Assembly (NCBI RefSeq): GCF_004210375.1
Contig: NC_134833.1
Span: 44,386,782-44,450,781, forward strand
Reading direction: 5' to 3'
DNA from: Tachypleus tridentatus
Taxonomy: Eukaryota; Arthropoda; Merostomata; Xiphosura; Limulidae
DNA length: 64,000 bases
Shown here: piece after piece, positions 3,266 through 25,418 of the stretch
Layout: every line of letters begins with the position of its first letter
Position numbering within the stretch: the stretch's first letter is position 1
Notes under the pieces: model-generated
Database searches by the model: none
What the model was told of the DNA's origin: nothing
What the model saw: the letters and a program-made list of their open reading frames with translations, nothing else
Position numbers and translations under genes: made by a program

Positions 3266-3734
3266 CTTTCTTGCAACGAGCTCAGTCAAAGTGAACAACC
3301 CTGCGACTCCTAACTGATCTTTAGTTTCCATTCTATAATTTTCTGCACCTTCACAAAATGTCATAAATTTTCAATGACCATTACAAGTCTTTTGTAAACA
3401 AAATTTTTTGACCACTGGATTAAAGTTTGAACTGAAAACTAAAGAGACAATTTTCTGAATGGAAAAATCACTCAATATTGCATTTCATTGTATTTTTGTT
3501 GGTTATAAATAACATACTATAAAATGTCAGAAAGAACTACAAGAAATTTGTTATAGAGAAGATGTAGCAGGTGGGCATGGCAAGAAGGTTCTGATTTTAC
3601 TGTTTATGGCTCTGTAACCAAATAACACAGAAGGCTATAAAAACTATGCTTTGCCTGACTAATAATAATATTATAATACGTAATTTATGTTAAATTACCT
3701 TACTTCTCAGAAGGACTGCATACTTGCACAATAC

Positions 3735-4500
3735 CATGAAATGCTTACACAAACAGCATGGTTCCCTCATTTTGCAGCAACAAATGTGACACTACACTTT
3801 TCATGCAGATGGTGACCCTCTGGTTATTGATAAACACATTTGGGAGGAGTACTTACACAGACCAAATCATTTACACATCACTTTCTACGTCAATGGCGAC
3901 CTCATTTACCAGACCAAATATGAGTTTTGGGAGTATCTTGAAGCCAGAAGCTACACACAGTTAAAGATATAAAAGATGCAATTGTCTGGGAAGTAGTCAG
4001 AATACCAGATGAAATGTGCATTGTTGAAGAGAACCAATGCATTCTGGATGGTGAAGGAGTTGCATATTGAAAAGTTACTGTGATTGATCATGCATCATGA
4101 AAAAGTGGCATCATGTAACAACTGTAGTATTTCCATCTCCATGGCTCCCTAACCCTGTGCAATTTTACCTCACTATGCCATACCATTTCTGAGATACAAT
4201 TTGCTGAAGTGTATCTCAGAAAATCTGGTATGGGTATTAACACGTTTATTCATAAGTGGAGAACGATGTTTCAACCTGGTTAACAAAGAGAGTTTGCAAC
4301 TGACCATTGCTGGACACTTGTCTCAGAAAAAAAGAGTATAAACAAATACAGGATTGTAGGAGGTATTGCAGTTGGATGTTACTTTATTCCTACACTAATT
4401 AATAAACTAATTCTTTATATTGGCTTAATTGTGGCTTTAGATCTTGTATAAGTAAGGCTTCTTTAATTTTGCATTTGTTTACATGTAAATAAAGAAGATC
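3735..4500 (+). pseudogene. Unidentified gene-like remnant, unit 1
   Basis: Open pieces in shifting frames read like former coding sequence. One contains IWEEYLHR then NGDLIYQTKYEFWEYLEARS, and further on IVWEVVRIPDEMC. Near the right end a frame with IVGGIAVGCYFIP and a hydrophobic tail ends in TAA, followed by AATAAA at about 4488. Stops and frameshifts break it, so it may be a retrocopy or a dead exon cluster. I do not recognise the family. Copies recur in every unit. Confidence 0.35.
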
Positions 4501-4693
4501 TACCCCCTTCTAGTTCCTAAGAATTTTAAAGAGAATGCACCTATCCCTGGAGAGAAAAGGATTTATTTTGATCAACTGTGTATTTTTATAATTAATGCCA
4601 TACAAGTGGAGAATAAATTGGTATTAAATTTTTAAGCATGAAAATGACCTGTAAATTTGCTGTACATTACTCAATATTAATAAAGGTACTTAC

Positions 4694-4798
4694 TTCTTCG
4701 TGTATAGGTTTTATCTTTTCTTGTAAAAGCCTGTCCACTAAGTCTTCAAAACAGCTTGCCCTTTCGCTAGAATTACTTGAGGCACCCAGCTCTAAGGT
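4694..4798 (-). CDS. Host gene repeat exon B, copy 1
   Basis: Minus-strand exon of 105 nt, phase 0 at both ends, between an acceptor (CATAAAG) and an excellent donor (GAAGAA|GTAAGT). Reads TLELGASSNSSERASC, then FEDLVDRLLQEKIKPIHEE, 35 residues without a stop. The C-terminal half looks like an amphipathic helix. The same exon recurs at 11008, 17326 and 23629 with substitutions only, and a diverged relative (85 nt) is at 25864-25948. Conserved length, frame and splice sites across all copies argue that it is a real exon. Family unknown. Confidence 0.72.
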
Positions 4799-5258
4799 CT
4801 TTATGTAAATTCAAGTAAACACAATGTTTTATATATTTTTAGTTCTTTTCCTATAGGCTGTATTTATGAAATTTAATATATTCAGTAAGAAACATTTTAC
4901 ACTAAATTATGTTCTAGTGCATACTGAACATTATGTTGACAACTACAGGAACTGTGCAATGAAAACCTTTTTTGTTTATAATATCATTCAAAACTAATTC
5001 TGTTATTCATTAGTTATTCATGTACTGCCATTTTTAAAACGCAATACACATTCTACGGTGTAATACAAATCTTTCCATGTTTTACCAGTTATTCTCCAAC
5101 CTAGTAGTATCATACATACATTTACAATAAATTTTCAAACAACTGATATAAATTAAAACAAGTGATAGTTCTACCTAAAATGGATGAATAAAATATTATT
5201 CCATATATGCTAGCCATTTTATTTAAGACTTGTATTTTTCGAAATTGTTAAAATTTAC

Positions 5259-5318
5259 CTGCTCAAAGCTTAAGTTTCTTTCACACTCTTGAATTTTATC
5301 TTCCTCAGGAAAATGTTC
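5259..5318 (-). CDS. Host gene repeat exon A, copy 1
   Basis: Minus-strand exon of 60 nt, phase 0 at both ends, with acceptor TTTTAATTTTAG and donor GAGCAG|GTAAAT. Encodes 20 mostly acidic and polar residues (EHFPEEDKIQ, then ECERNLSFEQ). It lies upstream of exon B on the coding strand, so each A+B pair adds 55 residues in frame. Identical in copies 1 to 3. Confidence 0.7.
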
Positions 5319-5764
5319 CTAAAATTAAAAAAAAAATCAAGCACCTTTATTGGAAAACAGTGAATTCAAGCTCACTTTTAAATAAGTATAACTGGTTGTG
5401 TAACTATCATGGTATACCAATTTCTCTAAGAAGTTAAGATAATGTTTACAAAAGAGTAGTTTAAGAAAAAAACAATCAAATTAAAATAAAGATCTAACTT
5501 AATACTTCTGCTCCAACAAAATGTTCAGAGAAATTCGTTACCCAAAACAATTTATTTTCAAGTTGATTTAAAAACATTTTTACACTAAAATACTTTTCAT
5601 ACAAAATAAACCAATAAAAAAGACATATCTATCCATTCTTCTATCATTAATAGTTCCACACGTGGTTAGGAAATTTAGCCAATGTCTGTATATATTCTCA
5701 ATCCATAATAATTTCGATAAAATTTATATTTCCTCTCCAAACGACATTTCGTTTCAATCAGTGT

Positions 5765-8700
5765 AATTCACCAAAACTAAAGATAATAATTGAGTAATAA
5801 AGGGGGTATATGATTGTCGAAAGGATCCCCCTGATAATGAGATATAGATCTGCACAACTTCTCTTCATACACATGTAGAATGTGAAAACAAAAGTGCAAA
5901 CATTGAAAGGTGCATATCTGGATGGGAGAGAGCATGATAGGAATGAGGTCCTAACCAGAGCAAGCAAAGGTAACTCAGCCCCACAAGAGTAAAGTGGGTA
6001 AACAAGGATGTGTCCCTGAGTTTAGAGTGGCTAAGGCAAGGCAGACCATACTTGGCAAGCAAATCACATCTGAAACCTTCTCATGGGGCACTATCATCTA
6101 TGATAGGGTAAGATTAGAACAATATTGCCTTCACTTCACATCCAAAATCCACCTATCTAGAAATTAACAACTAGTATTGAACAAATGTCTCTCGTATAGA
6201 ATCAACTCTCCAAATGTCACACTGACTACCACCATCCAAAGGCAATAAAATCCCCATAAGAAGAGAAGGAGGAAAGTCAAGAATGTAACTGTAACAATGT
6301 CACATACTACTACTATGATCTACAACACAGAATAATCGGGAGAGAATGATAGACAAATAAAAATTCTCTGAGTACTTATGATGATTGGTTCGTTCTGGTT
6401 CCAAACCTCCTTGTGGGTACTGACATATATGTGAGGGTAGGATGAGCGTTTCCAATCAAAGGATGAACTACAATTTTGACAGCTCAACTTCAGTGTTAAT
6501 GTCAATGGTATCAGGAGGCCATTTTATACAGTAAGGTGATGGGTTCAACTCCAGTGGTCATGTAAAATGGTACCAGAATGCCACATCTCATCTACATGAG
6601 CAGAACACCACTGCCCAACTCAAGAGTGAATGGTGAAAGCCATCTTTTTTTGTGGAACCCCTTCAAGTGAGTGCCCTTCAAAGTCAACTACCCACTGATG
6701 CTTGACATTGGAAATTGGTAAGAACTCCCATACTCTACTTGAGGAAAGGAGAGTGACAATTCAGTGAAGAGTCTGAAAAATTGACACCATTTCAGGCAGT
6801 TAAATGGGCGACGGTAAAATCTTATCTTGAAAAGAAGACCATATTAAAATGTTTACATGAGGCATGGCAGAGATGGGCAACAATTCCTTTCTGCTCTACC
6901 TATGCAGTCCATGGATGGGACAGTCCAGAAAAGGCCTGTTTGTGATACAAAATATCACCATGTTATTCACTGTCAAGCGATCTTGTGGAACACCTCATCT
7001 GAACTTTGACTGTGTGAAGCCATGAAAGATAAAATGGAGTTTACAGTCAAAGAATACCTTATCAGATACCACTCACCCTTGATGAGATTCATGAGAAAAA
7101 GTGGTAAAAGAATTCCTGAATGAAAGCAAATATAATTAAAAACTTACCAGTTACAGTCACACCAAAGTCTGAAAAATGACCACATGTGGTAGATGAAGTC
7201 GAAATCGTCATATGATGAAGATAGAAGTGGTCTATATGCAAGACAGTAGAGTCTCCTCCATTGGACAAAGATGACAAGATGCGAAAAATATAAGGTTTTG
7301 ACTGTGATGAAAGGAAACTTGGAACAAGGAAGAATAGACCAATTGAACCAAAAGGTAGTTACAACTAGTAAGGGTAGAAAGTGAAAGAACATGATGAGAG
7401 GTGGACTACCATGGAATATAAAGTCAGGAACATGTACTCTGTAAGCTATGTAACAATGAAGAACCTTGACTAGACACAGATCCAGTCTATCTACATTCAG
7501 CAGAGTGTAAAGATCAGATATAGAAGGAAGAGAAATAGTTGAAAAAGAGGAACAACCTTCCCAAGCTGCTGAAGTCTTCAGAAGAAAGGAATAATTTAGT
7601 TCAATGAGGAGATATATAGGATGGTAAAAGGTACATGAAATGTCAGTAGCAAAGAAATTCAAATGTCGATGCCCACAGACTTACAGAAGAAGTAAATGTG
7701 GTTTAAGGGACAGATGACACAAGGAAGGTGCTTCAAGTAAAGATAAAAAAATGCATTAGCTTGATAAGAGCAGGAGAAGTAAAACTTCTGTATTTAAAAT
7801 GAAAGGTTTTGGATAAGGCCACCTGATATCTGGAAAGGCCCAGGTTAGAAGTTCTGCAGCATTATCTATAGTTGGCTTGTCAGCAGAAAACCCACTTTTA
7901 GTAGACCAAGAGCAGAAGACTTTCCACGTGCATTGATATTCTTCTGTGGAAGATGGTTGTATGGAATTAGCTAACAAGGAAGCAACTTGATGTATGAAAC
8001 TGAATTATCTCATCAAAGATAGAACAAAAACTAGGTGCTAGATATATAGATTGTAGGATGTGGAATCAAGACTGATGAAAAGGGAGAGGGAAGTAGAAGA
8101 GTGGCAAAAGGGGAGAGGAGTAGTCATTAAAACCTTGGAAACAGGGTTGAACTGGCCAGTCGGGAGTAGTCCAGAGGACCTGACAAACAGTAAAGTAGAT
8201 GAGAGAAATCACCTCACAAAGCAATTGAATGGGAGGGTACACATAAAGATACTTGTGTGGCTAAACTTGGCTGAAGCCTTCGACTGCCAAATCCTATGGA
8301 TGGAGAACAGGCGAGGAAAAGAGGAGCAACTAGGTGTTATGTCCCATGACAAAGGCATCCACTTGGAGAGAACCCCACCGATCGCAAAGGTCCTGAAAAT
8401 GAGGGTATCAAATGTCCACTTCATCAAATAGATACAGTCAGAGAGCACAACTAAACTGAATGCACCAGACACAAATCATGCTATAAGGTGAATGCGATGT
8501 GCACTGATCAAATGTAACAGATCCAATGTCTAGAAAAGAGATATCTGGTTGATATGCACCACCACCATAGAATTGTCTAAAGGAACCATCATCAGACAAT
8601 AGTAGGCAAGATGAAGAAACTGACACAATGCCCGATGTATGGCTAGAAGTCCAAGAACATTGATATGCAATATGGTTTCATCCACAGGGTAATGGCCCAA

Positions 8701-9460
8701 CGCTTCTTGACTGACCCATGCATCTATCCCTGAATGAATGCATCTGTGAAACGATGTAGATTTAGATGCATGGATGAAGCTGAACACCCACTGACATATG
8801 GGCTTTCTCTAGCCACCATTGCAGAATGTCTCACAGGAAAGGACGAAGAAAAATTGCGTTGGAACAAAGACCCAGATTCCATTGTTTGTGAAATACCCAT
8901 TCAATCCCTTCAAATATGGCCATGACTGAGTAGGACCAGGACAGTCCTGGAGGACCATATCGCCTAAAGCAATATAACTTTACAAGCTGTAAGTTACTGA
9001 GCCTAGAGAGCAAGGTGAACTAAAAGTTCCATTGATATGAAGAAGAAGGCTGTGCGTGACTGTTATTTGTGTGAAAAAAAACCCACATAGATCAAATAAG
9101 TGGGTTGAAGTTATCAACCAACCCAGTAGAGCTGACACTGAATGAGCCAGAAGTCCATGTAATAATGAAATTCCAGCCTCCAGAGAATTGAGATAATGTA
9201 CAAAAGTCCCAACCATTTGACAAAACATATAAGGTGCTGAGGTACGTGTGACGGGGTGAGTCCAAAACTAATAAACCACCCCAAGATCGGCATACCAAAG
9301 ATAAGAAAAGCAAATACTTTGTGCTCTCAGTAGGTGTAGGTAAGCACTGGAGATATCCATTTTCATTATCTTCAACCAAGGGAAAAATATCCATCTCTGA
9401 GTGAAAAAAAAATTCCATTATGAACTTTGATAGTTCTATAATTTTCTGTACCTTCATTAA
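5765..9460 (-). mobile_element. DIRS-like tyrosine-recombinase retroelement relic, unit 1
   Basis: Reading leftward, decayed frames give reverse transcriptase (9457-8980), RNase H (8787-8209) and tyrosine recombinase (7977-7144), the order known for DIRS-like elements. A non-coding tail runs down to about 5.76 kb. Gag and the start of RT are missing, so the element is 5'-truncated. It sits in an intron of the minus-strand host gene in the same orientation. All domains have frameshifts. A one-base loss at about 8542 cuts the RNase H frame that is longer in units 2 and 3. Confidence 0.75.
7144..7662 (-). pseudogene. DIRS-like tyrosine recombinase, C-terminal piece, unit 1
   Basis: Unit 1 copy of the 172-codon recombinase relic, with a handful of substitutions against units 2 and 3 (for example LYTLLN for LYPLLN). 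No intact catalytic set. Confidence 0.5.
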
Positions 9461-10049
9461 ATATCACAAATTTATAGACAAAAGATTAGAATTTTTAATG
9501 AAGTATTTTCACTAAAATTTCTCCATGAGCATATTGAATCAAAGTGTTGACTACCCTGAGTGATTTTTGTATTAAGATTAAAAATACTTTCCTTCATCTG
9601 ACAATGGTCAAATTTTATTTTTATTATATCTAAAACCTCCTAAGTAAATTTCAAATATTTTAAAAGTAACATTTTATATCTATTATTTTTCTACTCTAGC
9701 TTTATTCAAGGTTTGCCAATTTTTTGACCATGGTAATAAAGTGTGAACTGAAAACTAATGAGACAATTTTCCGAATGGAAAATAACACAATATTGCATTT
9801 CATTGTATTTTTGTTTGTTATAATTAACATACTATCAAATGTCAGAAAGAACTACTAGCAATTTGTTATAGAGAAGATGTAGCAGGTGGGCATGGCAAGA
9901 AGATTCTGATTTTACAGTTTATGGCTCTGTAACCAAATAACACAGAAGGCTATAAAAACTATGCTTTGCCTGACTAATAATAATATTATAATACGTAATT
10001 TATGTTAAATTACCTTACTTCTCAGAAGGACTGCACACTTGCACAATAC

Positions 10050-10813
10050 CATGAAATGCTTACACAATCAGCATGGTTCCCTCATTTTGCAGCAACAAAT
10101 GTGACACTACAATTTTCATGCAGATGGTGACCCTCTGGTTATTGATAAAACATTTGGGAGGAGTACTTACACAGACTAAATCATTTACACATCACTTTCT
10201 ACGTCAATGGAGACCTCATTTACCAGACCAAATATGAGTTTTGGGAGTATCTTGAAGCCAGAAGCTACACACAGTTAAAGATATAAAAGATGCAATTGTC
10301 TGGGAAGTAGTCAGCATACCAGATGAAATGTGCATTGTTGAAGAGAACCAATGCATTCTGGATGGTGAAGGAGTTGCATATTGAAAAGTTACTGTGATTG
10401 ATCATGCATCATGAAAAAGTGGCACCATGTAACAACTGTAGTATTTCCATCTCCATGGCTCCCTAACCCTGTGCAATTTTACCTCACTATGCCATACCAT
10501 TTCTGAGATACAATTTGCTGAAGTGTATATCAGAACATCTGGTATGGGTATTAACACGTTTATTCATAAGTGGAGAACGATGTTTCAACTTGGTTAACAA
10601 AGAGAGTTTGCAACTGACCGTTGCTGGACACTTGTCTCAGAAAAAAAGAGTATAAACAAATACAGGATTGTAGGAGGTATTGCAGTTGGATGTTACTTTA
10701 TTCCTACACTAATTAATAAACTAATTCTTTATATTGGCTTAATTGTGGCTTTAGATCTTGTATAAGTAAGGCTTCTTTAATTTTGCATTTGTTTACATGT
10801 AAATAAAGAAGAT
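10050..10813 (+). pseudogene. Unidentified gene-like remnant, unit 2
   Basis: Second copy of the remnant described for 3735-4500, with the same stops and an A-run that breaks the frame near 10150. It moves with the unit, so it was present before the tandem duplication. Confidence 0.35.
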
Positions 10814-11007
10814 CTACCCCCTTCTAGTTCCTAAGAATTTTAAAGAGAATGCACCTATCCCTGGAGAGAAAAGGATTTATTTTGATCAACTGTGTATTTT
10901 TATAATTAATGCCATACAAGTGGAGAATAAATTGGTATTAAATTTTTAAGCATGAAAATGACCTGTAAATTTGCTGTACATTACTCAATATTAATAAAGG
11001 TACTTAC

Positions 11008-11112
11008 TTCTTCGTGTATAGGTTTTATCTTTTCTTGTAAAAGCCTGTCCACTAAGTCTTCCAAACAGCTTGCCCTTTCGCTAGAATTACTTGAGGCACC
11101 CAGCTCTAAGGT
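11008..11112 (-). CDS. Host gene repeat exon B, copy 2
   Basis: 105-nt phase-0 exon identical in length and splice sites to copy 1. The only protein change against copy 1 is F to L in the CFEDLVD segment (CLEDLVD). Donor GAAGAA|GTAAGT retained. Confidence 0.72.
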
Positions 11113-11574
11113 CTTTATGTAAATTCAAGTAAACACAATGTTTTATATATTTTTTAGTTCTTTTCCTATAGGCTGTATTTATGAAATTTAATATATTCAG
11201 TAAGAAACATTTTACACTAAATTATGTTCTAGTGCATACTGAACATTATGTTGACAACTACAGGAACTGTGCAATGAAAACCTTTTTTGTTTATAATATC
11301 ATTCAAAACTAATTCTGTTATTCATTAGTTATTCATGTACTGCCATTTTTTAAAACGCAATACACATTCTACGGTGTAATACAAATCTTTCCATGTTTTA
11401 CCAGTTATTCTCCAACCTAGTAGTATCATACATACATTTACAATAAATTTTCAAACAACTGATATAAATTAAAACAAGTGATAGTTCTACCTAAAATGGA
11501 TGAATAAAATATTATTCCATATATGCTAGCCATTTTATTTAAGACTTGTATTTTTCGAAATTGTTAAAATTTAC

Positions 11575-11634
11575 CTGCTCAAAGCTTAAGTTTCTTTCAC
11601 ACTCTTGAATTTTATCTTCCTCAGGAAAATGTTC
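11575..11634 (-). CDS. Host gene repeat exon A, copy 2
   Basis: 60-nt phase-0 exon, same 20 residues and same splice sites as the copy at 5259-5318. Pairs with exon B at 11008-11112. Confidence 0.7.
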
Positions 11635-13460
11635 CTAAAATTAAAAAAAAAATCAAGCACCTTTATTGGAAAACAGTGAATTCAAGCTCACTTTTAAATA
11701 AGTATAACTGGTTGTGTAACTATCATGGTATACCAATTTCTCTAAGAAGTTAAGATAATGTTTACAAAAGAGTAGTTTAAGAAAAAAACAATCAAATTAA
11801 AATAAAGATCTAACTTAATACTTCTGCTCCAACAAAATGTTCAGAGAAATTCGTTACCCAAAACAATTTATTTTCAAGTTGATTTAAAAACATTTTTACA
11901 CTAAAATACTTTTCATACAAAATAAACCAATAAAAAAGACATATCTATCCATTCTTCTATCATTAATAGTTCCACACGTGGTTAGGAAATTTAGCCAATG
12001 TCTGTATATATTCTCAATCCATAATAATTTCGATAAAATTTATATTTCCTCTCCAAACGACATTTCGTTTCAATCAGTGTAATTCACCAAAACTAAAGAT
12101 AATAATTGAGTAATAAAGGGGGTATATGATTGTCGAAAGGATCCCCCTGATAATGAGATATAGATCTGCACAACTTCTCTTCATACACATGTAGAATGTG
12201 AAAACAAAAGTGCAAACATTGAAAGGTGCATATCTGGATGGGAGAGAGCATGATAGGAATGAGGTCCTAACCAGAGCAAGCAAAGGTAACTCAGCCCCAC
12301 AAGAGTAAAGTGGGTAAACAAGGATGTGTCCCTGAGTTTAGAGTGGCTAAGGCAAGGCAGACCATACTTGGCAAGCAAATCACATCTGAAACCTTCTCAT
12401 GGGGCACTATCATCTATGGTAGGGTAAGATTAGAACAATATTGCCTTCACTTCACATCCAAAATCCACCTATCTAGAAATTAACAACTAGTATTGAACAA
12501 ATGTCTCTCGTATAGAATCAACTCTCCAAATGTCACACTGACTACCACCATCCAAAGGCAATAAAATCCCCATAAGAAGAGAAGGAGGGAAAGTCAAGAA
12601 TGTAACTGTAACAATGTCACATACTACTACTATGATCTACAACACAGAATAATCGGGAGAGAATGATAGACAAATAAAAATTCTCTGAGTACTTATGATG
12701 ATTGGTTCGTTCTGGTTCCAAACCTCCTTGTGGGTACTGACATATATGTGAGGGTAGGATGAGCGTTTCCAATCAAAGGATGAACTACAATTTTGACAGC
12801 TCAACTTCAGTGTTAATGTCAATGGTATCAGGAGGCCATTTTATACAGTAAGGTGATGGGTTCAACTCCAGTGGTCATGTAAAATGGTACCAGAATGCCA
12901 CATCTCATCTACATGAGCAGAACACCACTGCCCAACTCAAGAGTGAATGGTGAAAGCCATCTTTTTTTTGTGGAACCCCTTCAAGTGAGTGCCCTTCAAA
13001 GTCAACTACCCACTGATGCTTGACATTGGAAATTGGTAAGAACTCCCATACTCTACTTGAGGAAAGGAGAGTGACAATTCAGTGAAGAGTCTGAAAAATT
13101 GACACCATTTCAGGCAGTTAAATGGGCGACGGTAAAATCTTATCTTGAAAAGAAGACCATATTAAAATGTTTACATGAGGCATGGCAGAGATGGGCAACA
13201 ATTCCTTTCTGCTCTACCTATGCAGTCCATGGATGGGACAGTCCAGAAAAGGCCTGTTTGTGATACAAAATATCACCATGTTATTCACTGTCAAGCGATC
13301 TTGTGGAACACCTCATCTGAACTTTGACTGTGTGAAGCCATGAAAGATAAAATGGAGTTTACAGTCAAAGAATACCTTATCAGATACCACTCACCCTTGA
13401 TGAGATTCATGAGAAAAAGTGGTAAAAGAATTCCTGAATGAAAGCAAATATAATTAAAAC

Positions 13461-13979
13461 TTACCAGTTACAGTCACACCAAAGTCTGAAAAATGACCAC
13501 ATGTGGTAGATGAAGTCTAAATCGTCATATGATGAAGATAGAAGTGGTCTATATGCAAGACAGTAGAGTCTCCTCCATTGGACAAAGAAGACAAGAAGCG
13601 AAAAATATAAGGTTTTGACTGTGATGAAAGGAAACTTGGAACAAGGAAGAATAGACCAATTGAACCAAAAGGTAGTTACAACTAGTAAGGGTAGAAAGTG
13701 AAAGAACATGATGAGAGGTGGACTACCATGGAATATAAAGTCAGGAACATGTACTCTGTAAGCTATATAACAATGAAGAACCTTGACTAGACACAGATCC
13801 AGTCTATCTACATTCAGCAGAGGGTAAAGATCAGATATAGAAGGAAGAGAAATAGTTGAAAAAGAGGAACAACCTTCCCAAGCTGCTGAAGTCTTCAGAA
13901 GAAAGGAATAATTTAGTTCAATGAGGAGATATATAGGATGGTAAAAGGTACATGAAATGTCAGTAGCAAAGAAATTCAA
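13461..13979 (-). pseudogene. DIRS-like tyrosine recombinase, C-terminal piece
   Basis: A 172-codon frame, the longest in the unit, also at 7662-7144 and 20300-19782. It includes DRLDLCLVKVLHCYIA, which resembles the 'L-C-P-V-R-A-L-x-x-Y' region between recombinase boxes in this family, and follows the N-terminal piece. I do not see an intact R-H-x-x-R-Y set. Its length tempts one to call a gene, but context and decay say relic. Confidence 0.5.
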
Positions 13980-14049
13980 ATGTCGATGCCCACAGACTTA
14001 CAGAAGAAGTAAATGTGGTTTAAGGGACAGATGACACAAGGAAGGTGCT

Positions 14050-14295
14050 TCAAGTAAAGATAAAAAAATGCATTAGCTTGATAAGAGCAGGAGAAGTAAA
14101 ACTTCTGTATTTAAAAATGAAAGGTTTTGGATAAGGCCACCTGATATCTGGAAAGGCCCAGGTTAGAAGTTCTGCAGCATTATCTATAGTTGGCTTGTCA
14201 GCAGAAAACCCACTTTTAGTAGACCAAGAGCAGAAGACTTTCCACGTGCATTGATATTCTTCTGTGGAAGATGGTTGTATGGAATTAGCTAACAA
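14050..14295 (-). pseudogene. DIRS-like tyrosine recombinase, N-terminal piece
   Basis: The frame has IQPSSTEEYQCTWKVFCSWS, matching the start of the SAM-like N-domain of DIRS recombinases (S-R-S-T-x-x-Y-x-x-K-W-x-x-F-x-x-W pattern). It follows the RNase H piece on the coding strand. Equivalents: 7977-7756 and 20615-20394. The rest of the domain is at lower coordinates in another frame. Confidence 0.68.
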
Positions 14296-14755
14296 GGAAG
14301 CAACTTGATGTATGAAACTGAATTATCTCATCAAAGATAGAACAAAAACTAGGTGCTAGATATATAGATTGTAGGATGTGGAATCAAGACTGATGAAAAG
14401 GGAGGGGGAAGTAGAAGAGTGGCAAAAGGGGAGAGGAGTAGTCATTAAAACCTTGGAAACAGGGTTGAACTGGCCAGTCGGGAGTAGTCCAGAGGACCTG
14501 ACAAACAGTAAAGTAGATGAGAGAAATCACCTCACAAAGCAATTGAATGGGAGGGTACACATAAAGATACTTGTGTGGCTAAACTTGGCTGAAGCCTTCG
14601 ACTGCCAAATCCTATGGATGGAGAACAGGCGAGGAAAAGAGGAGCAACTAGGTGTTATGTCCCATGACAAAGGCATCCACTTGGAGAGAACCCCACCGAT
14701 CGCAAAGGTCCTGAAAATGAGGGTATCAAATGTCCACTTCATCAAATAGATACAG

Positions 14756-15106
14756 TCAGAGAGCACAACTAAACTGAATGCACCAGACACAAATCATGCT
14801 ATAAGGTGAATGCGATGTGCACTGATCAAATGTAACAGATCCAATGTCTAGAAAAGAGATATCTTGGTTGATATGCACCACCACCATAGAATTGTCTAAA
14901 GGAACCATCATCAGACAATAGTAGGCAAGATGAAGAAACTGACACAATGCCCGATGTATGGCTAGAAGTCCAAGAACATTGATATGCAATATGGTTTCAT
15001 CCACAGGGTAATGGCCCAACGCTTCTTGACTGACCCATGCATCTATCCCTGAATGAATGCATCTGTGAAACGATGTAGATTTAGATGCATGGATGAAGCT
15101 GAACAC
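14756..15106 (-). pseudogene. DIRS-like RNase H fragment
   Basis: A 116-codon frame with the features expected in DIRS RNase H: DAWVSQEALGHYP, the strongly conserved-looking ILHINVLGLLAIHRALCQFL, then LDNSMVVVHINQ where the family has a DN-TVVAYI motif. It continues after a frameshift into 14790-14527. Equivalents: 21410-21060, and a broken one at 8787-8438. Non-functional as it stands. Confidence 0.68.
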
Positions 15107-15409
15107 CCACTGACATATGGGCTTTCTCTAGCCACCATTGCAGAATGTCTCACAGGAAAGGACGAAGAAAAATTGCGTTGGAACAAAGACCCAGATTCCA
15201 TTGTTTGTGAAATACCCATTCAATCCCTTCAAATATGGCCATGACTGAGTAGGACCAGGACAGTCCTGGAGGACCATATCGCCTAAAGCAATATAACTTT
15301 ACAAGCTGTAAGTTACTGAGCCTAGAGAGCAAGGTGAACTAAAAGTTCCATTGATATGAAGAAGAAGGCTGTGCGTGACTGTTATTTGTGTGAAAAAAAC
15401 CCACATAGA

Positions 15410-15775
15410 TCAAATAAGTGGGTTGAAGTTATCAACCAACCCACTAGAGCTGACACTGAATGAGCCAGAAGTCCATGTAATAATGAAATCCCAGCCTCCA
15501 GAGAATTGAGATAATGTACAAAAGTCCCAACCATTTGACAAAACATATAAGGTGCTGAGGTACGTGTGACGGGGTGAGTCCAAAACTAATAAACCACCCC
15601 AAGATCGGCATACCAAAGATAAGAAGAGCAAATACTTTGTGCTCTCAGGAGGTGTAGGTAAGCACTGGAGATATCCATTTTCATTATCTTCAACCAAGGG
15701 AAAAATATCCATCTCTGAGTGAAAAAAAAATTCCATTATGAACTTTGATAGTTCTATAATTTTCTGTACCTTCAT
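15410..15775 (-). pseudogene. DIRS-like reverse transcriptase fragment
   Basis: A 121-codon frame covering the middle of an RT domain: an aspartate-initiated DIFPL/ENGYLQ region, the WGGLLVLDSP stretch where family members have an aromatic LPFGL-like motif, then a GWDFCTLSQFSGGW region. The continuing frames reach the position of the usual YLDD box, which is not present, so it cannot be catalytic. Equivalent pieces: 9457-9092 and 22079-21714. The domain call is from gapped similarity by eye. Confidence 0.6.
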
Positions 15776-16369
15776 TAAATATCACAAACTTATAGACAAA
15801 AGATTAGAATTTTTAATGAAGTATTTTCACTAAAATTTCTCCATGAGCATATTGAATCAAAGTGTTGACTACCCTGAGTGATTTTTGTATTAAGATTAAA
15901 AATACTTTCCTTCATCTGACAATGGTCAAATTTTATTTTTATTATATCTAAAACCTCCTAAGTAAATTTCAAATATTTTAAAAGTAACATTTTATATCTA
16001 TTATTTTTCTACTCTAGCTTTATTCAAGGTTTGCCAATTTTTTGACCATGGTAATAAAGTGTGAACTGAAAACTAATGAGACAATTTTCCGAATGGAAAA
16101 TAACACAATATTGCATTTCATTGTATTTTTGTTTGTTATAATTAACATACTATCAAATGTCAGAAAGAACTACTAGCAATTTGTTATAGAGAAGATGTAG
16201 CAGGTGGGCATGGCAAGAAGATTCTGATTTTACAGTTTATGGCTCTGTAACCAAATAACACAGAAGGCTATAAAAACTATGCTTTGCCTGACTAATAATA
16301 ATATTATAATACGTAATTTATGTTAAATTACCTTACTTCTCAGAAGGACTGCACACTTGCACAATACCA

Positions 16370-17130
16370 TGAAATGCTTACACAATCAGCATGGTTCCCT
16401 CATTTTGCAGCAACAAATGTGACACTACAATTTTCATGCAGATGGTGACCCTCTGGTTATTGATAAAAACATTTGGGAGGAGTACTTACACAGACTAAAT
16501 CATTTACACATCACTTTCTACGTCAATGGAGACCTCATTTACCAGACCAAATATGAGTTTTGGGAGTATCTTGAAGCCAGAAGCTACACACAGTTAAAGA
16601 TATAAAAGATGCAATTGTCTGGGAAGTAGTCAGCATACCAGATGAAATGTGCATTGTTGAAGAGAACCAATGCATTCTGGATGGTGAAGGAGTTGCATAT
16701 TGAAAAGTTACTGTGATTGATCATGCATCATGAAAAAGTGGCACCATGTAACAACTGTAGTATTTCCATCTCCATGGCTCCCTAACCCTGTGCAATTTTA
16801 CCTCACTATGCCATACCATTTCTGAGATACAATTTGCTGAAGTGTATATCAGAACATCTGGTATGGGTATTAACACGTTTATTCATAAGTGGAGAACGAT
16901 GTTTCAACCTGGTTAACAAAGAGAGTTTGCAACTGACCGTTGCTGGACACTTGTCTCAGAAAAAAGAGTATAAACAAATACAGGATTGTAGGAGGTATTG
17001 CAGTTGGATGTTACTTTATTCCTACACTAATTAATAAACTAATTCTTTATATTGGCTTAATTGTGGCTTTAGATCTTGTATAAGTAAGGCTTCTTTAATT
17101 TTGCATTTGTTTACATGTAAATAAAGAAGA
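16370..17130 (+). pseudogene. Unidentified gene-like remnant, unit 3
   Basis: Third copy of the remnant described for 3735-4500. Here a one-base change in an A-run gives a 66-codon frame at 16834-17034, which is only a fragment of the older frame. Confidence 0.35.
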
Positions 17131-17325
17131 TCTACCCCCTTCTAGTTCCTAAGAATTTTAAAGAGAATGCACCTATCCCTGGAGAGAAAAGGATTTATTT
17201 TGATCAACTGTGTATTTTTATAATTAATGCCATACAAGTGGAGAATAAAATGGTATTAAATTTTTAAGCATGAAAATGACCTGTAAATTTGCTGTACATT
17301 ACTCAATATTAATGAAGGTACTTAC

Positions 17326-17430
17326 CTCTTCGTGTATAGGTTTTATTTTTTCTTGTAAAGGCCCGTCCACTAAGTCTTCCAAACAGCTTGCCCTTTCGCT
17401 AGAATTACTTGAGGCATCCAGTTCTAAGGT
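17326..17430 (-). CDS. Host gene repeat exon B, copy 3
   Basis: 105-nt phase-0 exon with G to D at residue 5 (TLELDASS) and RL to GP in the helix (LVDGPLQEK). Its last codon is GAG where copies 1 and 2 have GAA, giving donor GAG|GTAAGT. Copies 3 and 4 share these differences, so they form one lineage and copies 1 and 2 another. Confidence 0.72.
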
Positions 17431-17892
17431 CTTTGTGTAAATTCAAGTAAACACAATGTTTTATATATTTTTTAGTTCTTTTCCTATAGGCTGTATTTAT
17501 GAAATTTAATATATTCAGTAAGAAACATTTTACACTAAATTATGTTCTAGTGCATACTGAACATTATGTTGACAACTACAGGAACTGTGCAATGAAAACC
17601 TTTTTTGTTTATAATATCATTCAAAACTAATTCTGTTATTCATTAGTTATTCATGTACTGCCATTTTTTAAAACGCAATACACATTCTATGGTGTAATAC
17701 AAATCTTTCCATGTTTTACCAGTTATTCGCCAACCTAGTAGTATCATACATACATTTACAATAATTTTTTAAACAACTGATATAAATTAAAACAAGTGAT
17801 AGTTCTATCTAAAATGGATGATTAAAATATTATTCCATATATGCTAGCCATTTTATTTAAGACTTGTATTTTTCGAAATTGTTAAAATTTAC

Positions 17893-17952
17893 CTGCTCAA
17901 AGCTTAAGTTTCTTTCACACTCTTGAATTTTATCTTCCTCAGGAAAATGTTC
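17893..17952 (-). CDS. Host gene repeat exon A, copy 3
   Basis: 60-nt phase-0 exon, same 20 residues and splice sites as copies 1 and 2. Confidence 0.7.
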
Positions 17953-18399
17953 CTAAAATTAAAAAAAAAAATCAAGCACCTTTATTGGAAAACAGTGAAT
18001 TCAAGCTCACTTTTAAATAAGTATAACTGGTTGTGTAACTATCATGGTATACCAATTTCTCTAAGAAGTTAAGATAATGTTTACAAAAAGAGTAGTTTAA
18101 GAAAAAAACAATCAAATTAAAATAAAGATCTAACTTAATACTTCTGCTCCAACAAAATGTTCAGAGAAATTCGTTACCCAAAACAATTTATTTTCAAGTT
18201 GATTTAAAAACATTTTTACACTAAAATACTTTTCATACAAAATAAACCAATAAAAAAGACATATCTATCCATTCTTCTATCATTAATAGTTCCACACGTG
18301 GTTAGGAAATTTAGCCAATGTCTGTATATATTCTCAATCCATAATAATTTCGATAAAATTTATATTTCCTCTCCAAACGACATTTCGTTTCAATCAGTG

Positions 18400-21300
18400 T
18401 AATTCACCAAAACTAAAGATAATAATTGAGTAATAAAGGGGGTATATGATTGTCTAAAGGATCCCCCTGATAATGAGATATAGATCTGCACAACTTCTCT
18501 TCATACACATGTAGAATGTGAAAACAAAAGTGCAAACATTGAAAGGTGCATATCTGGATGGGAGAGAGCATGATAGGAATGAGGTCCTAACCAGAGCAAG
18601 CAAAGGTAACTCAGCCCCACAAGAGTAAAGTGGGTAAACAAGGATGTGTCCCTGAGTTTAGAGTGGCTAAGGCAAGGCAGACCATACTTGGCAAGCAAAT
18701 CACATCTGAAACCTTCTCATGGGGCACTATCATCTATGATAGGGTAAGATTAGAACAATATTGCCTTCACTTCACATCCAAAAATCCACCTATCTAGAAA
18801 TTAACAACTAGTATTGAACAAATGTCTCTCGTATAGAATCAACTCTCCAAATGTCACACTGACTACCACCATCCAAAGGCAATAAAATCCCCATAAGAAG
18901 AGAAGGAGGAAAGTCAAGAATGTAACTGTAACAATGTCACATACTACTACTATGATCTACAACACAGAATAATCGGGAGAGAATGATAGACAAATAAAAA
19001 TTCTCTGAGTACTTATGATGATTGGTTCGTTCTGGTTCCAAACCTCCTTGTGGGTACTGACATATATGTGAGGGTAGGATGAGCGTTTCCAATCAAAGGA
19101 TGAACTACAATTTTGACAGCTCAACTTCAGTGTTAATGTCAATGGTATCAGGAGGCCATTTTATACAGTAAGGTGATGGGTTCAACTCCAGTGGTCATGT
19201 AAAATGGTACCAGAATGCCACATCTCATCTACATGAGCAGAACACCACTGCCCAACTCAAGAGTGAATGGTGAAAGCCATCTTTTTTTTGTGGAACCCCT
19301 TCAAGTGAGTGCCCTTCAAAGTCAACTACCCACTGATGCTTGACATTGGAAATTGGTAAGAACTCCCATACTCTACTTGAGGAAAGGAGAGTGACAATTC
19401 AGTGAAGAGTCTGAAAAATTGACACCATTTCAGGCAGTTAAATGGGCGACGGTAAAATCTTATCTTGAAAAGAAGACCATATTAAAATGTTTACATGAGG
19501 CATGGCAGAGATGGGCAACAATTCCTTTCTGCTCTACCTATGCAGTCCATGGATGGGACAGTCCAGAAAAGGCCTGTTTGTGATACAAAATATCACCATG
19601 TTATTCACTGTCAAGCGATCTTGTGGAACACCTCATCTGAACTTTGACTGTGTGAAGCCATGAAAGATAAAATGGAGTTTACAGTCAAAGAATACCTTAT
19701 CAGATAACACTCACCCTTGATGAGATTCATGAGAAAAAGTGGTAAAAGAATTCCTGAATGAAAGCAAATATAATTAAAAACTTACCAGTTACAGTCACAC
19801 CAAAGTCTGAAAAATGACCACATGTGGTAGATGAAGTCTAAATCGTCATATGATGAAGATAGAAGTGGTCTATATGCAAGACAGTAGAGTCTCCTCCATT
19901 GGACAAAGAAGACAAGAAGCGAAAAATATAAGGTTTTGACTGTGATGAAAGGAAACTTGGAACAAGGAAGAATAGACCAATTGAACCAAAAGGTAGTTAC
20001 AACTAGTAAGGGTAGAAAGTGAAAGAACATGATGAGAGGTGGACTACCATGGAATATAAAGTCAGGAACATGTACTCTGTAAGCTATATAACAATGAAGA
20101 ACCTTGACTAGACACAGATCCAGTCTATCTACATTCAGCAGAGGGTAAAGATCAGATATAGAAGGAAGAGAAATAGTTGAAAAAGAGGAACAACCTTCCC
20201 AAGCTGCTGAAGTCTTCAGAAGAAAGGAATAATTTAGTTCAATGAGGAGATATATAGGATGGTAAAAGGTACATGAAATGTCAGTAGCAAAGAAATTCAA
20301 ATGTCGATGCCCACAGACTTACAGAAGAAGTAAATGTGGTTTAAGGGACAGATGACACAAGGAAGGTGCTTCAAGTAAAGATAAAAAAATGCATTAGCTT
20401 GATAAGAGCAGGAGAAGTAAAACTTCTGTATTTAAAATGAAAGGTTTTGGATAAGGCCACCTGATATCTGGAAAGGCCCAGGTTAGAAGTTCTGCAGCAT
20501 TATCTATAGTTGGCTTGTCAGCAGAAAACCCACTTTTAGTAGACCAAGAGCAGAAGACTTTCCATGTGCATTGATATTCTTCTGTGGAAGATGGTTGTAT
20601 GGAATTAGCTAACAAGGAAGCAACTTGATGTATGAAACTGAATTATCTCATCAAAGATAGAACAAAAACTAGGTGCTAGATATATAGATTGTAGGATGTG
20701 GAATCAAGACTGATGAAAAAGGGAGAGGGGAAGTAGAAGAGTGGCAAAAGGGGAGAGGAGTAGTCATTAAAACCTGGCCAGTCGGGAGTAGTCCAGAGGA
20801 CCTGACAAACAGTAAAGTAGATGAGAGAAATCACCTCACAAAGCAATTGAATGGGAGGGTACACATAAAGATACTTGTGTGGCTAAACTTGGCTGAAGCC
20901 TTCGACTGCCAAATCCTATGGATGGAGAACAGGCGAGGAAAAGAGGAGCAACTAGGTGTTATGTCCCATGACAAAGGCATCCACTTGGAGAGAACCCCAC
21001 CGATCGCAAAGGTCCTGAAAATGAGGGTATCAAATGTCCACTTCATCAAATAGATACAGTCAGAGAGCACAACTAAACTGAATGCACCAGATACAAATCA
21101 TGCTATAAGGTGAATGCAATGTGCACTGATCAAATGTAACAGATCCAATGTCTAGAAAAGAGATATCTTGGTTGATATGCACCACCACCATAGAATTGTC
21201 TAAAGGAACCATCATCAGACAATAGTAGGCAAGATGAAGAAACTGACACAATGCCCGATGTATGGCTAGAAGTCCAAGAACATTGATATGCAATATGGTT

Positions 21301-22082
21301 TCATCCACAGGGTAATGGCCCAACGCTTCTTGACTGACCCATGCATCTATCCCTGAATGAATGCATCTGTGAAACGATGTAGATTTAGATGCATGGATGA
21401 AGCTGAACACCCACTGACATATGGGCTTTCTCTAGCCACCATTGCAGAATGTCTCACAGGAAAGGACGAAGAAAAATTGCGTTGGAACAAAGACCCAGAT
21501 TCCATTGTTTGTGAAATACACATTCAATCCCTTCAAATATGGCCATGACTGAGTAGGACCAGGACAGTCCTGGAGGACCATATCGCCTAAAGCAATATAA
21601 CTTTACAAGCTGTAAGTTACTGAGCCTAGAGAGCAAGGTGAACTAAAAGTTCCATTGATATGAAGAAGAAGGCTGTGCGTGACTGTTATTTGTGTGAAAA
21701 AAACCCACATAGATCAAATAAGTGGGTTGAAGTTATCAACCAACCCACTAGAGCTGACACTGAATGAGCCAGAAGTCCATGTAATAATGAAATCCCAGCC
21801 TCCAGAGAATTGAGATAATGTACAAAAGTCCCAACCATTTGACAAAACATATAAGGTGCTGAGGTACGTGTGACGGGGTGAGTCCAAAACTAATAAACCA
21901 CCCCAAGATCGGCATACCAAAGATAAGAAGAGCAAATACTTTGTGCTCTCAGGAGGTGTACATAAGCACTGGAGATATCCATTTTCATTATCTTCAACCA
22001 AGGGAAAAATATCCATCTCTGAGTGAAAAAAAAATTCCATTATGAACTTTGATAGTTCTATAATTTTCTGTACCTTCATTAA
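18400..22082 (-). mobile_element. DIRS-like retroelement relic, unit 3
   Basis: Copy of the element in units 1 and 2. RT at 22079-21714, RNase H at 21410-21060 and 21070-20831, recombinase at 20615-20394 and 20300-19782. It has a private 18-bp deletion near 20775, which removes the segment between AAAACC and TGGCCAG and brings a conserved TPDWPGF segment (20864-20676) into one frame. Confidence 0.75.
19782..20300 (-). pseudogene. DIRS-like tyrosine recombinase, C-terminal piece, unit 3
   Basis: Unit 3 copy of the 172-codon recombinase relic, identical in protein to unit 2 as far as I can see. Confidence 0.5.
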
Positions 22083-22672
22083 ATATCACAAACTTATAGA
22101 CAAAAGATTAGAATTTTTAATGAAGTATTTTCACTAAAATTTCTCCATGAGCATATTGAATCAAAGTGTTGACTACACTGAGTGATTTTTGTATTAAGAT
22201 TAAAAATACTTTCCTTCATCTGACAATGGTCAAATTTTATTTTTATTATATCTAAAACCTCCTAAGTAAATTTCAAATATTTTAAAAGTAACATTTTATA
22301 TCTATTATTTTTCTACTCTAGCTTTATTCAAGGTTTGCCAATTTTTGACCATGGTAATAAAGTGTGAACTGAAAACTAATGAGACAATTTTCCGAATGGA
22401 AAATAACACAATATTGCATTTCATTGTATTTTTGTTTGTTATAATTAACATACTATCAAATGTCAGAAAGAACTACTAGCAATTTGTTATAGAGAAGATG
22501 TAGCAGGTGGGCATGGCAAGAAGATTCTGATTTTACAGTTTATGGCTCTGTAACCAAATAACACAGAAGGCTATAAAAACTATGCTTTGACTGACTAATA
22601 ATAATATTATAATACGTAATTTATGTTAAATTACCTTACTTCTCAGAAGGACTGCACACTTGCACAATACCA

Positions 22673-23432
22673 TGAAATGCTTACACAATCAGCATGGTTC
22701 CCTCATTTTGCAGCAACAAATGTGACACTACAATTTTCATGCAGATGGTGACCCTCTGGTTATTGATAAAAACATTTGGGAGGAGTACTTACACAGACTA
22801 AATCATTTACACATCACTTTCTACGTCAATGGAGACCTCATTTACCAGACCAAATATGAGTTTTGGGAGTATCTTGAAGCCAGAAGCTACACACAGTTAA
22901 AGATATAAAAGATGCAATTGTCTGGGAAGTAGTCAGCATACCAGATGAAATGTGCATTGTTGAAGAGAACCAATACATTCTGGATGGTGAAGGAGTTGCA
23001 TATTGAAAAGTTACTGTGATTGATCATGCATCATGAAAAAGTGGCACCATGTAACAACTGTAGTATTTCCATCTCCATGGCTCCCTAACCCTGTGCAATT
23101 TTACCTCACTATGCCATACCATTTCTGAGATACAATTTGCTGAAGTGTATATCAGAACATCTGGTATGGGTATTAACACGTTTATTCATAAGTGGAGAAC
23201 GATGTTTCAACCTGGTTAACAAAGAGAGTTTGCAACTGACCGTTGCTGGACACTTGTCTCAGAAACAAGAGTATAAACAAATACAGGATTGTAGGAGGTA
23301 TTGCAGTTGGATGTTACTTTATTCCTACACTAATTAATAAACTAATTCTTTATATTGGCTTAATTGTGGCTTTAGATCTTGTATAAGTAGGGCTTCTTTA
23401 ATTTTGCATTTGTTTACATGTAAATAAAGAAG
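22673..23432 (+). pseudogene. Unidentified gene-like remnant, unit 4
   Basis: Fourth copy of the remnant described for 3735-4500, with a few private substitutions (for example AAACAAG where other units have an A-run). Confidence 0.35.
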
Positions 23433-23628
23433 ACCTACTCCCTTCTAGTTCCTAAGAATTTTAAAGAGAATGCACCTATCCCTGGAGAGAAAAGAATTTA
23501 TTTTGATCAACTGTGTATTTTTATAATTAATGCCATACAAGTGGAGAATAAAATGGTATTAAATTTTTAAGCATGAAAATGACCTGTAAATTTGCTGTAC
23601 ATTACTCAATATTAATGAAGGTACTTAC

Positions 23629-23733
23629 CTCTTCGTGTATAGGTTTTATTTTTTCTTGTAAAGGCCCGTCCACTAAGTCTTCGAAACAGCTTGCCCATTC
23701 GCCAGAATTACTTGAGGCATCCAGTTCTAAGGT
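23629..23733 (-). CDS. Host gene repeat exon B, copy 4
   Basis: 105-nt phase-0 exon. It shares D5 and the GP pair with copy 3 and adds S to G and R to W changes (NSGEWASC). Still fully open with both splice sites, the most diverged of the four B exons. Confidence 0.72.
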
Positions 23734-24194
23734 CTTTGTGTAAATTCAAGTAAACACAATATTTTATATTTTTTTAGTTCTTTTCCTATAAGCTGTATTT
23801 ATGAAATTTAATATATTCAGTAAGAAACATTTTACACTAAATTATGTTCTAGTGCATACTGAACATTATGTTGACAACTCCAGGAACTGTGCAATGAAAA
23901 CCTTTTTTGTTTATAATATCATTCAAAACTAATTCTGTTATTCATTAGTTATTCATGTACTGCCATTTTTTAAAACGCAATACACATTCTATGGTGTAAT
24001 ACAAATCTTTCCATGTTTTACCAGTTATTCGCCAACCTAGTAGTTTCATACATACATTTACAATAATTTTTTAAACAACTGATATAAATTAAAACAAGTG
24101 ATAGTTCTATCTAAAATGGATGATTAAAATATTATTCCATATATGCTAGCCCTTTTATTTAAGACTTGTATTTTTCGAAATTGTTAAAATTTAC

Positions 24195-24254
24195 CTGCTC
24201 AAAGCTTAAGTTTCTTTCACACTCTTGAATTTTATCTTCCTCAGGAAAATGGAC
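24195..24254 (-). CDS. Host gene repeat exon A, copy 4
   Basis: 60-nt phase-0 exon. First codon is GTC (V) instead of GAA (E); the other 19 residues match copies 1 to 3. On the coding strand this is the first A exon and follows the exon at 25864-25948, which also ends in phase 0. Confidence 0.7.
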
Positions 24255-24704
24255 CTAAAATTAAAAAAAAAAATCAAGCACCTTTATTGGAAAACAGTGA
24301 ATTCAAGCTCACTTTTTAATAAGTATAACAGGTTGTGTAACTATCATGGAACACCAATTTCTCTAAGAAGTTAAGCTAATGTTTATAAATATAGTAGTTT
24401 AAGAAAAAAAACAATCAAAATAAAATAAAGATCTAACTTAATACTTCTGCTCCAACAAAATGTTCAGAGAAATTTGTTACCCAAAACAATTTATTTTCAA
24501 GTTAATTTAAAAACATTTTTACACTGAAATACTTTTCATACAAAATAAACCATTAAAAAAGACATATCTGTCAATTCTTCCATCATTAATAGTTCCACAC
24601 GTGGTTAGGAAATTCAGCCAGTGTCTGTATATATTCTCAATCCATAATAATTTCGATAAAATTTGTATTTCCTCTCCAAACGACATTTCGTTTCAATCAG
24701 TATA

Positions 24705-25418
24705 ATTCACCAAAACTCAAGATAATAATTGAGTAATAAAGGGGGTATATGATTGTCGAAAGGATCCCCCCTGATAATGAGATATAGATCTGCACAACTT
24801 CTCTTCATACACATGTAGAATGTGAAAACAAAAGTGCAAACATTGAAAGGTGCATATCTGGATGGGAGAGAGCATGATAGGAATGAATTCCTACCCAGAG
24901 TAAGCAAAGGTAACTCAGCCCCACAAGAGTAAAGTGGGTAAACAAGGATGTGTCCCTGAGTTTAGAGTGGCTAAGGCAAGGCAGACCATACTTGGTAATC
25001 AAATCACATCTAAAACCTTCTCATGGGGCACTATCATCTATGATAGGGTAAGATTAGTACAATATTGCCTTCACTTTACATCCAAAAATCCACCTATCTA
25101 GAAATTAACAACTAGTATTGACCATACTTGGTAAGCAAATCACATCTAAAACCTTCTCATGGGGCACTATCATCTATGGTAGGGTAAGATTAGAACACGA
25201 TTGCCTTCACTTCACATCCAAAAATCCACCTATCTAGAAATTAACAACTAGTATTGAACAGATGTCTCTCATATACAATCAACTCCCCAAATGTCACACT
25301 GACTACCACCATCCAAAGGTAATAAAATCCCCATAAGAAGAGAAGGAGGGAAAGTCAAGAATGTAACTGTAACAATGCCACATACGGCTACTAATGATCT
25401 ACAACACAGAATAATCGG
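24705..25418 (-). mobile_element. DIRS-like relic, unit 4, 3' tail only
   Basis: Only the non-coding left part of the element is present before the array breaks at about 25418. It holds an internal direct duplication of about 136 bp (24984-25119 and 25120-25255) absent from the other units. Confidence 0.7.
24984..25255. repeat. 136-bp direct duplication in unit 4
   Basis: GACCATACTTGGTAA...ACTAGTATTG occurs at 24984-25119 and again at 25120-25255, with a few differences. Units 1 to 3 have one copy. Confidence 0.85.

What the first reader, a model, noticed from the sequence alone, without database searches (positions are those of the whole stretch)
3414..25418. Intragenic 6.3-kb tandem duplication that multiplies an in-frame exon pair
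Three full and one partial unit each add exon A (60 nt) and exon B (105 nt), both phase 0, so every duplication lengthens the protein by 55 residues without breaking the frame. All eight exons are intact while the transposon frames beside them are decayed, which suggests selection on the exons. Copy number could vary between individuals.
Basis: partly seen in the sequence, partly recalled or inferred. Interest (0 to 1): 0.8.

Follow-up and report, generated by a model that had tools for sequence, protein, structure and literature searches.

The report
Horseshoe crab MOSPD2-like linker-exon array
Part of a horseshoe crab gene for a membrane-tethering protein has one small pair of exons repeated four times in a row, and in this gene family the protein-coding pieces have changed two to three times faster than the non-coding DNA around them.

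Summary
The array is real: three ~6.3-kb units plus a partial fourth (3402-25418), each with a 60-nt exon A and a 105-nt exon B, phase 0, on the MINUS strand, all eight open with AG/GT borders. The genome is a horseshoe crab's (coagulin). The gene belongs to the MOSPD2 family of tail-anchored MSP-domain proteins. Paralogues read P-rich exon, MSP1, MSP2, A', B', (AB)n, membrane anchor. The window holds the anchor exon, four AB pairs, B' and A'; homology stops at 27883/27884 and MSP1/MSP2 were not found, so this copy looks 5'-truncated. A paralogue with a CRAL-TRIO exon upstream has no AB pair between B' and anchor. It indicates that B is a chimera: 5' half from the exon before the MSP domain, 3' half from B'. 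AB number differs between paralogues. But against a paralogue on C4 the exons are 27.5% divergent and adjoining non-coding DNA 10.7%, with frames kept; synonymous sites are raised too, which simple positive selection does not explain.

The parts
1475..1597 (-). last coding exon: C-terminal hydrophobic (membrane-anchor) segment of 40 aa plus TAA stop; AATAAA follows at about 1439-1444
   Evidence: divergent open island in the window/C4/Q alignment; translation; 13 matches genome-wide, 12 of 13 without a stop
3402..9717 (-). array unit 1
   Evidence: self-comparison
9718..16035 (-). array unit 2
   Evidence: self-comparison
16036..22341 (-). array unit 3
   Evidence: self-comparison
22342..25418 (-). 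array unit 4, partial
   Evidence: self-comparison
4694..4798 (-). exon B1 (35 aa, phase 0-0)
5259..5318 (-). exon A1 (20 aa, phase 0-0)
11008..11112 (-). exon B2
11575..11634 (-). exon A2
17326..17430 (-). exon B3
17893..17952 (-). exon A3
23629..23733 (-). exon B4
24195..24254 (-). exon A4
25864..25948 (-). exon B' (85 nt): end of the MSP domain plus linker; relative of the 3' half of B
   Evidence: (80-81% match of 25416-25909 to 4264-4739)
26386..26491 (-). exon A' (106 nt): C-terminal part of the MSP domain; 42 nt of it absent, in frame, from C4 and C19
27883..27884 (.). breakpoint: homology to loci Q and C4 ends; the right side matches the flank of copy P, where it follows other sequence

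Best explanation
The window carries the 3' part of one copy of a MOSPD2-family gene of a horseshoe crab, on the minus strand. A full member encodes an MSP domain, a linker and a C-terminal membrane anchor (one paralogue also has a CRAL-TRIO exon upstream), so it should work as an ER-anchored tether whose MSP domain grips partners on other membranes. The AB unit was born when the exon just before the MSP domain (P0, with its upstream neighbour A0) was joined, inside an exon, to the exon just after it (B'), giving A plus a chimeric B and leaving out the MSP exons. That cassette then multiplied by unequal exchange in the linker region, each step adding 55 residues between MSP domain and anchor because every junction is phase 0. 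The window copy has four pairs but has lost its 5' end at 27883/27884 and is probably not a working gene now. Shown from sequence: exon structure by frame and splice-site conservation, family, mixed origin of the unit, copy-number differences, no MSP1/MSP2 found at this locus. Inferred: splicing itself, unequal exchange, tether function, and that a longer linker alters reach or flexibility.
For: Pfam MSP domain PF00635: E 3.7e-11 for the spliced Q model, 1.9e-9 for C19. PDB sequence search: 1wic, an unnamed RIKEN protein (1.8e-7), then two chains named MOSPD2 (3.4e-7, 7.5e-7), then VAPA/VAPB and one MSP chain (0.0075 and weaker); the two alignments printed run through A' into B'. CRAL-TRIO exon 8 kb 5' of MSP exons at C9:121.79 Mb. 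The unit matches that paralogue's DNA before the MSP domain at 84.8% (A0 and following intron) and its DNA at B' at 80.1%; the matches end 46 bp before exon B and resume 72 nt into it, and P0 matches B residues 2-15 (E 0.003), which puts the switch inside exon B. No A or B exon between B' and anchor there. Copy numbers. Family is coding: 1 indel (42 nt, in frame) in 799 compared exon bp against 65 in 7415 non-coding bp; 6.7 stops expected, 0 seen, P 0.00065. Breakpoint; 19 MSP-exon matches in the genome, none at the window.
Against: No transcript was seen. In the 5'-most AB pair of both C4 and C19 exon B has a GG donor in place of GT, so not every pair need be used. Q also has an AB pair 5' of its MSP exons and a P-rich exon with a B-like 5' half, so the order of events may be more complex. 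The two DNA matches leave a gap of about 117 bp at the switch, and the exon-level link of P0 to B is a short match. No membrane-segment predictor or fold was run. The fuller paralogue was judged from single exon hits; its A' was not fetched.
Confidence: 0.8

Rival explanations
1. The window copy is still a working gene: it uses a new 5' end beyond 27884 and makes a membrane-anchored protein with four 55-residue repeats but only the tail of an MSP domain.
For: All 11 exons identified in the window are open; the anchor exon differs from that of copy P by one replacement only.
Against: No convincing MSP1/MSP2 match in the window and none of the 19 genome matches lies near it; the break is abrupt. 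Copy P is about 99% alike, too recent for decay to show.
Confidence: 0.15
2. The array, or the P/Q/Q'/window cluster, is wholly or partly an assembly artefact (uncollapsed haplotypes or a misjoin).
For: P and the window are 99.2% identical over 10.6 kb and 36 kb; two 500-N gaps lie in 44.10-44.30 Mb, one interrupting the P array.
Against: Arrays of the same architecture occur on C4 and C19; units within the window differ from one another; window and P have different sequence left of the shared flank.
Confidence: 0.2
3. The AB pairs are passengers: a repeat-rich intron amplified and the exons are not under constraint.
For: dN/dS about 0.67 between C9 and C4 exons, so weak amino-acid constraint; a GG donor in one C4/C19 pair.
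Against: No stop and one in-frame indel where 6.7 stops and about 7 indels were expected, all exon types taken together; the change in divergence falls at the exon edges.
Confidence: 0.15
4. Introns only look slow because gene conversion between loci homogenises them, while diverged exons resist conversion; exon divergence is then the true age of the copies.
For: Synonymous sites (0.352) exceed non-coding sites (0.107); three locus pairs give similar non-coding distances. Such a pattern is known in other gene families (recalled, not looked up).
Against: No gradient in the flanks: 8.6-14% from 1 bp outward; the loci lie on different contigs or 77 Mb apart; the sequence 3' of the gene is as alike as the introns.
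Confidence: 0.4

Closest known systems
MOSPD2 (motile sperm domain-containing protein 2), a VAP-related ER tether
   Same: MSP domain nearer to MOSPD2 than to VAP by sequence, CRAL-TRIO exon upstream at C9:121.79 Mb, C-terminal hydrophobic anchor
   Different: the horseshoe crab copies are multiplied, diverge fast, and several carry added 55-residue repeats between MSP domain and anchor; in the window copy MSP1/MSP2 were not found
Tandem exon duplication in animal genes (general phenomenon, recalled)
   Same: symmetric exons copied in tandem, frame kept
   Different: the unit is 6.3 kb with two exons, one of them apparently a fusion of two exons that flank a domain
Viperid three-finger toxin genes and Conus toxin genes (PMC2474615: abstract and outline seen; PMC3862624: search passages seen)
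   Same: introns more alike than parts of the exons among duplicated genes
   Different: nothing here points to a toxin; here synonymous sites are raised as well and the change falls at exon edges

Membership tests
MOSPD2 | MSP domain, nearer to MOSPD2 than to VAPA/B | tested here: met
   met in paralogue Q; the window itself holds only A' and B', the last part of the domain
MOSPD2 | CRAL-TRIO domain N-terminal of MSP | tested here: inconclusive
   one exon 8 kb upstream of MSP exons at C9:121.79 Mb; among the 21 matches none at C9:44, C4:46.5 or C19:21.2, in a search that gives lower bounds
MOSPD2 | C-terminal transmembrane anchor | tested here: met
   hydrophobic C-terminal exon in window, P, Q, C4, C19; judged by eye from composition, no predictor run
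MOSPD2 | binding of FFAT motifs, ER location | not testable with these tools
   needs experiment
VAPA/VAPB | closest MSP match among family members | tested here: not met
   VAP chains 0.0075 or weaker, against 3.4e-7 and 7.5e-7 for chains named MOSPD2
tandem exon duplication | adjacent copies of symmetric exons in one gene | tested here: met

The most novel reading that the evidence does not exclude
Horseshoe crabs have a fast-diversifying family of MOSPD2-like membrane tethers whose reach is set by a variable number of chimeric 55-residue linker cassettes, and whose exons, synonymous sites included, accumulate changes two to three times faster than the DNA touching them, pointing to an exon-confined diversification process and not just selection on amino acids.
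Probability: 0.25. Interest if true: 0.8.

Novelty: new variant of a known kind. Interest (0 to 1): 0.5.

Why it matters
It offers a series of gene copies (0, 2, 3 and 4 cassettes) for how a repeat protein grows from a single-copy linker, with the founding exon fusion apparently still readable. If the divergence confined to exons, synonymous sites included, holds up, it would be a test case for telling apart positive selection, gene conversion and exon-linked mutation. It also suggests that a contact-site tether is diversifying fast in horseshoe crabs.

Tried and rejected
Considered and set aside: a secreted micro-exon gene (the protein ends in a hydrophobic anchor; no signal exon was searched for); a transposon-borne exon pair (the units lie inside homologous genes; of the 9 window ORFs tested only 35381-35797 gave a Pfam family, hAT, outside the array); CpG decay as the cause of exon divergence (0.0125 CpG per bp in exons, too rare); multi-nucleotide mutation (79 codons with one difference and 44 with more; about 86 and 38 expected by hand arithmetic for independent changes, no clear excess).

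Results against my reading: the C4-C19 pair does not repeat the exon excess evenly. Exons 29/795 (0.036) against non-coding 162/7863 (0.021); B' has 9 differences in the B'/A' segment (0.061 against 0.034, p 0.1), MSP1 and MSP2 15/198 (0.076 against 0.016, p 1.2e-5), while the A, B and anchor segments are below their surroundings. The A exon alone, parent against window, is not significant (0.183 against 0.119, p 0.15). Window units 1 and 2 differ at only 1 of 105 sites in B, and the stretch 3402-3500 is as variable as B. The coagulin and CRAL-TRIO controls rang in 0 of 14 genomes each, so those controls may hold no animal and say little.

Literature: 'MOSPD2' with 'horseshoe crab' gave 0 papers in the held library; the 12 rows shown of 2,431 held no occurrence of 'major sperm protein domain' or 'tandem exon duplication'.
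Full report
OBSERVATION. Self-comparison of the window gives units starting at 3402, 9718, 16036 and 22342, the last partial to 25418. The three full units differ by 0.4-1.0% in non-coding DNA and the fourth from them by 1.7-3.1%. Exons A (60 nt) and B (105 nt) lie on the minus strand in each unit, 8 of 8 open, with AG/GT borders.

SOURCE. The window is C9:44386782-44450781 of a 2.17-Gb genome. Pfam coagulin, a family that I recall as horseshoe crab clotting protein, matches piece by piece from position 1 to 174 at C11:9.016-9.022 Mb. Its control rang in 0 of 14 genomes, but so did CRAL-TRIO, so the control says little. The species was not determined.

GENE. Alignment of the window with paralogue loci C4 and Q (C9:44.196-44.217 Mb) showed islands that diverge more than their surroundings and stay open: the anchor exon at 1475-1597 with a stop and AATAAA behind it, and exons B' (25864-25948) and A' (26386-26491). 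Upstream in Q, C4 and C19 lie a proline-rich exon, MSP1 and MSP2. Splice phases fit MSP2 to A' and A' to B'. The spliced Q model matches the Pfam MSP domain at 3.7e-11 and the C19 model at 1.9e-9. In the PDB sequence search the first hit is an unnamed RIKEN protein (1wic, 1.8e-7), whose printed letters are nearly those of the next two, chains named MOSPD2 (3.4e-7, 7.5e-7); VAPA follows at 0.0075. The two printed alignments run from the exon before MSP1 through A' into B'. At C9:121.79 Mb a CRAL-TRIO exon lies 8 kb 5' of MSP exons, as in MOSPD2 (recalled). MOSPD2 is described as an ER tether of the VAP family in PMC8306308, and VAP proteins as tethers binding FFAT motifs in PMC7610837 (only the abstract starts in the listing were seen).

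THE WINDOW COPY IS CUT. Q and C4 match each other beyond the point equivalent to 27883, but the window does not. The window continues with a flank also found beside copy P, where different sequence precedes it. tblastn with the MSP exons finds only chance-level matches in the window (E 0.87 and 0.93), and none of the 19 genome matches lies at the window or P. That search scores only the best candidates, and P has a 500-N gap that could hide something.

BIRTH OF THE UNIT. In the fuller paralogue the order is A0, P0, MSP1, MSP2, (A' not fetched), B', anchor, with no A or B exon between B' and anchor. The window unit matches DNA around A0 and the following intron at 84.8% over 958 columns, and the DNA at and after B' at 80.1% over 497 columns. 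The first match ends 46 bp before exon B and the second begins 72 nt into it. P0 begins with residues that resemble the 5' half of B (B residues 2-15, 64% identical, E 0.003; sequence), and Q's proline-rich exon does so too. So B most likely joins the 5' half of P0 to the 3' half of B', leaving out the MSP exons. Which recombination made it is inference.

COPY NUMBER. Window: four AB pairs. Q: A B A A A B downstream of MSP (4 A, 2 B), plus an AB pair upstream of MSP. C4: two pairs. C19: three B exons, two with A seen; the third A would lie outside the fetched stretch. B-exon search: 12 at C9:44.12-44.41 Mb (window 4, P 1, Q 3, Q' 4) and 1 on C13, 13 of 13 without stops; the C4 and C19 exons, known from fetched DNA, were not returned by it, so it undercounts. 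Anchor exons: 13 places, 12 without stops, one with a TGA.

EVOLUTION. C9 (window, or Q for the MSP exons) against C4: exons 220/799 = 0.275, non-coding 796/7415 = 0.107. These are seven exon types in nine pairs: window units 1 and 4 were each set against one of the two C4 units; units 2 and 3 were left out as near-copies. Non-coding divergence from 1-10 bp to over 400 bp from the exon edges is 0.086, 0.140, 0.092, 0.121, 0.111, 0.112, 0.096: a step and no gradient. Against the C9:121.78 paralogue: exons 101/461 = 0.219, non-coding 402/3819 = 0.105, p 3.8e-11; the anchor and B' alignments there each show one gap inside the exon, not examined further. In three-way comparisons all three pairs show it: anchor exon 0.225-0.250 against 0.080-0.097, MSP exons 0.208-0.249 against 0.100-0.112. 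Against the pattern: C4-C19, a young pair, shows it only in MSP1/MSP2 and, not significantly, B'.

Coding constraint is real at family level: 1 indel, 42 nt and in frame, in 799 exon bp against 65 in 7415 non-coding bp. A simulation of 171 random substitutions in seven window exons (counts, MSP exons not included) gave 6.7 stops on average and none in 0.065% of runs; none is seen. Nei-Gojobori counting for C9-C4 gives S 56/159 = 0.352, N 164/633 = 0.259, dN/dS 0.67; S is far above the non-coding 0.107 (binomial p 2e-16, taking sites as independent). Fourfold sites in unchanged codons differ in 8 of 19. So this is not plain positive selection with neutral synonymous sites. In ten recent pairs among window, P, Q and Q' (not independent) the differences add up to 18 replacement and 2 silent over about 787 and 197 sites. 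Within the array, units 1 and 3 differ at 7/105 in B and 9/1060 in nearby non-coding DNA, but units 1 and 2 differ at only 1/105, and the stretch 3402-3500 is as variable as B.

READING. The family makes MSP-domain, membrane-anchored proteins with a linker that grew by whole cassettes. The likely effect is a longer tether between domain and membrane; nothing here tests that. The window copy itself is most likely a recently truncated member. The raised divergence of exons is the stranger result and its cause is open: non-coding DNA homogenised by conversion, substitution confined to exons, or selection with some unmodelled effect.

Noticed in passing
C9:44.12-44.45 Mb (L009-L028 and window): Four similar copies (P, Q, Q', window) of the locus within about 330 kb, with two 500-N gaps in 44.10-44.30 Mb; recent segmental duplication or uncollapsed haplotypes.
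   Followed up: partly
C4:46516163-46516267 and L033:799-903: Exon B of the 5'-most AB pair has a GG donor in place of GT in both C4 and C19 although its frame is open.
   Followed up: partly
C4:46.505-46.528 Mb against C19:21.177-21.208 Mb: Loci on different contigs are about 98% identical in non-coding DNA, pointing to a recent duplication or exchange between chromosomes.
   Followed up: partly
Q, C9:44201461-44203906: A 1.2-kb sub-repeat triplicates exon A alone (A A A), a second scale of in-frame exon duplication.
   Followed up: no
window 26672-26927: Tandem repeat of period 63 bp upstream of A', longer in C4 and C19.
   Followed up: no
window 33699-35800: Broken plus-strand ORFs of a hAT-type transposon (Pfam Dimer_Tnp_hAT 2.6e-5 for 35381-35797; the two ORFs before it gave no family).
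   Followed up: partly
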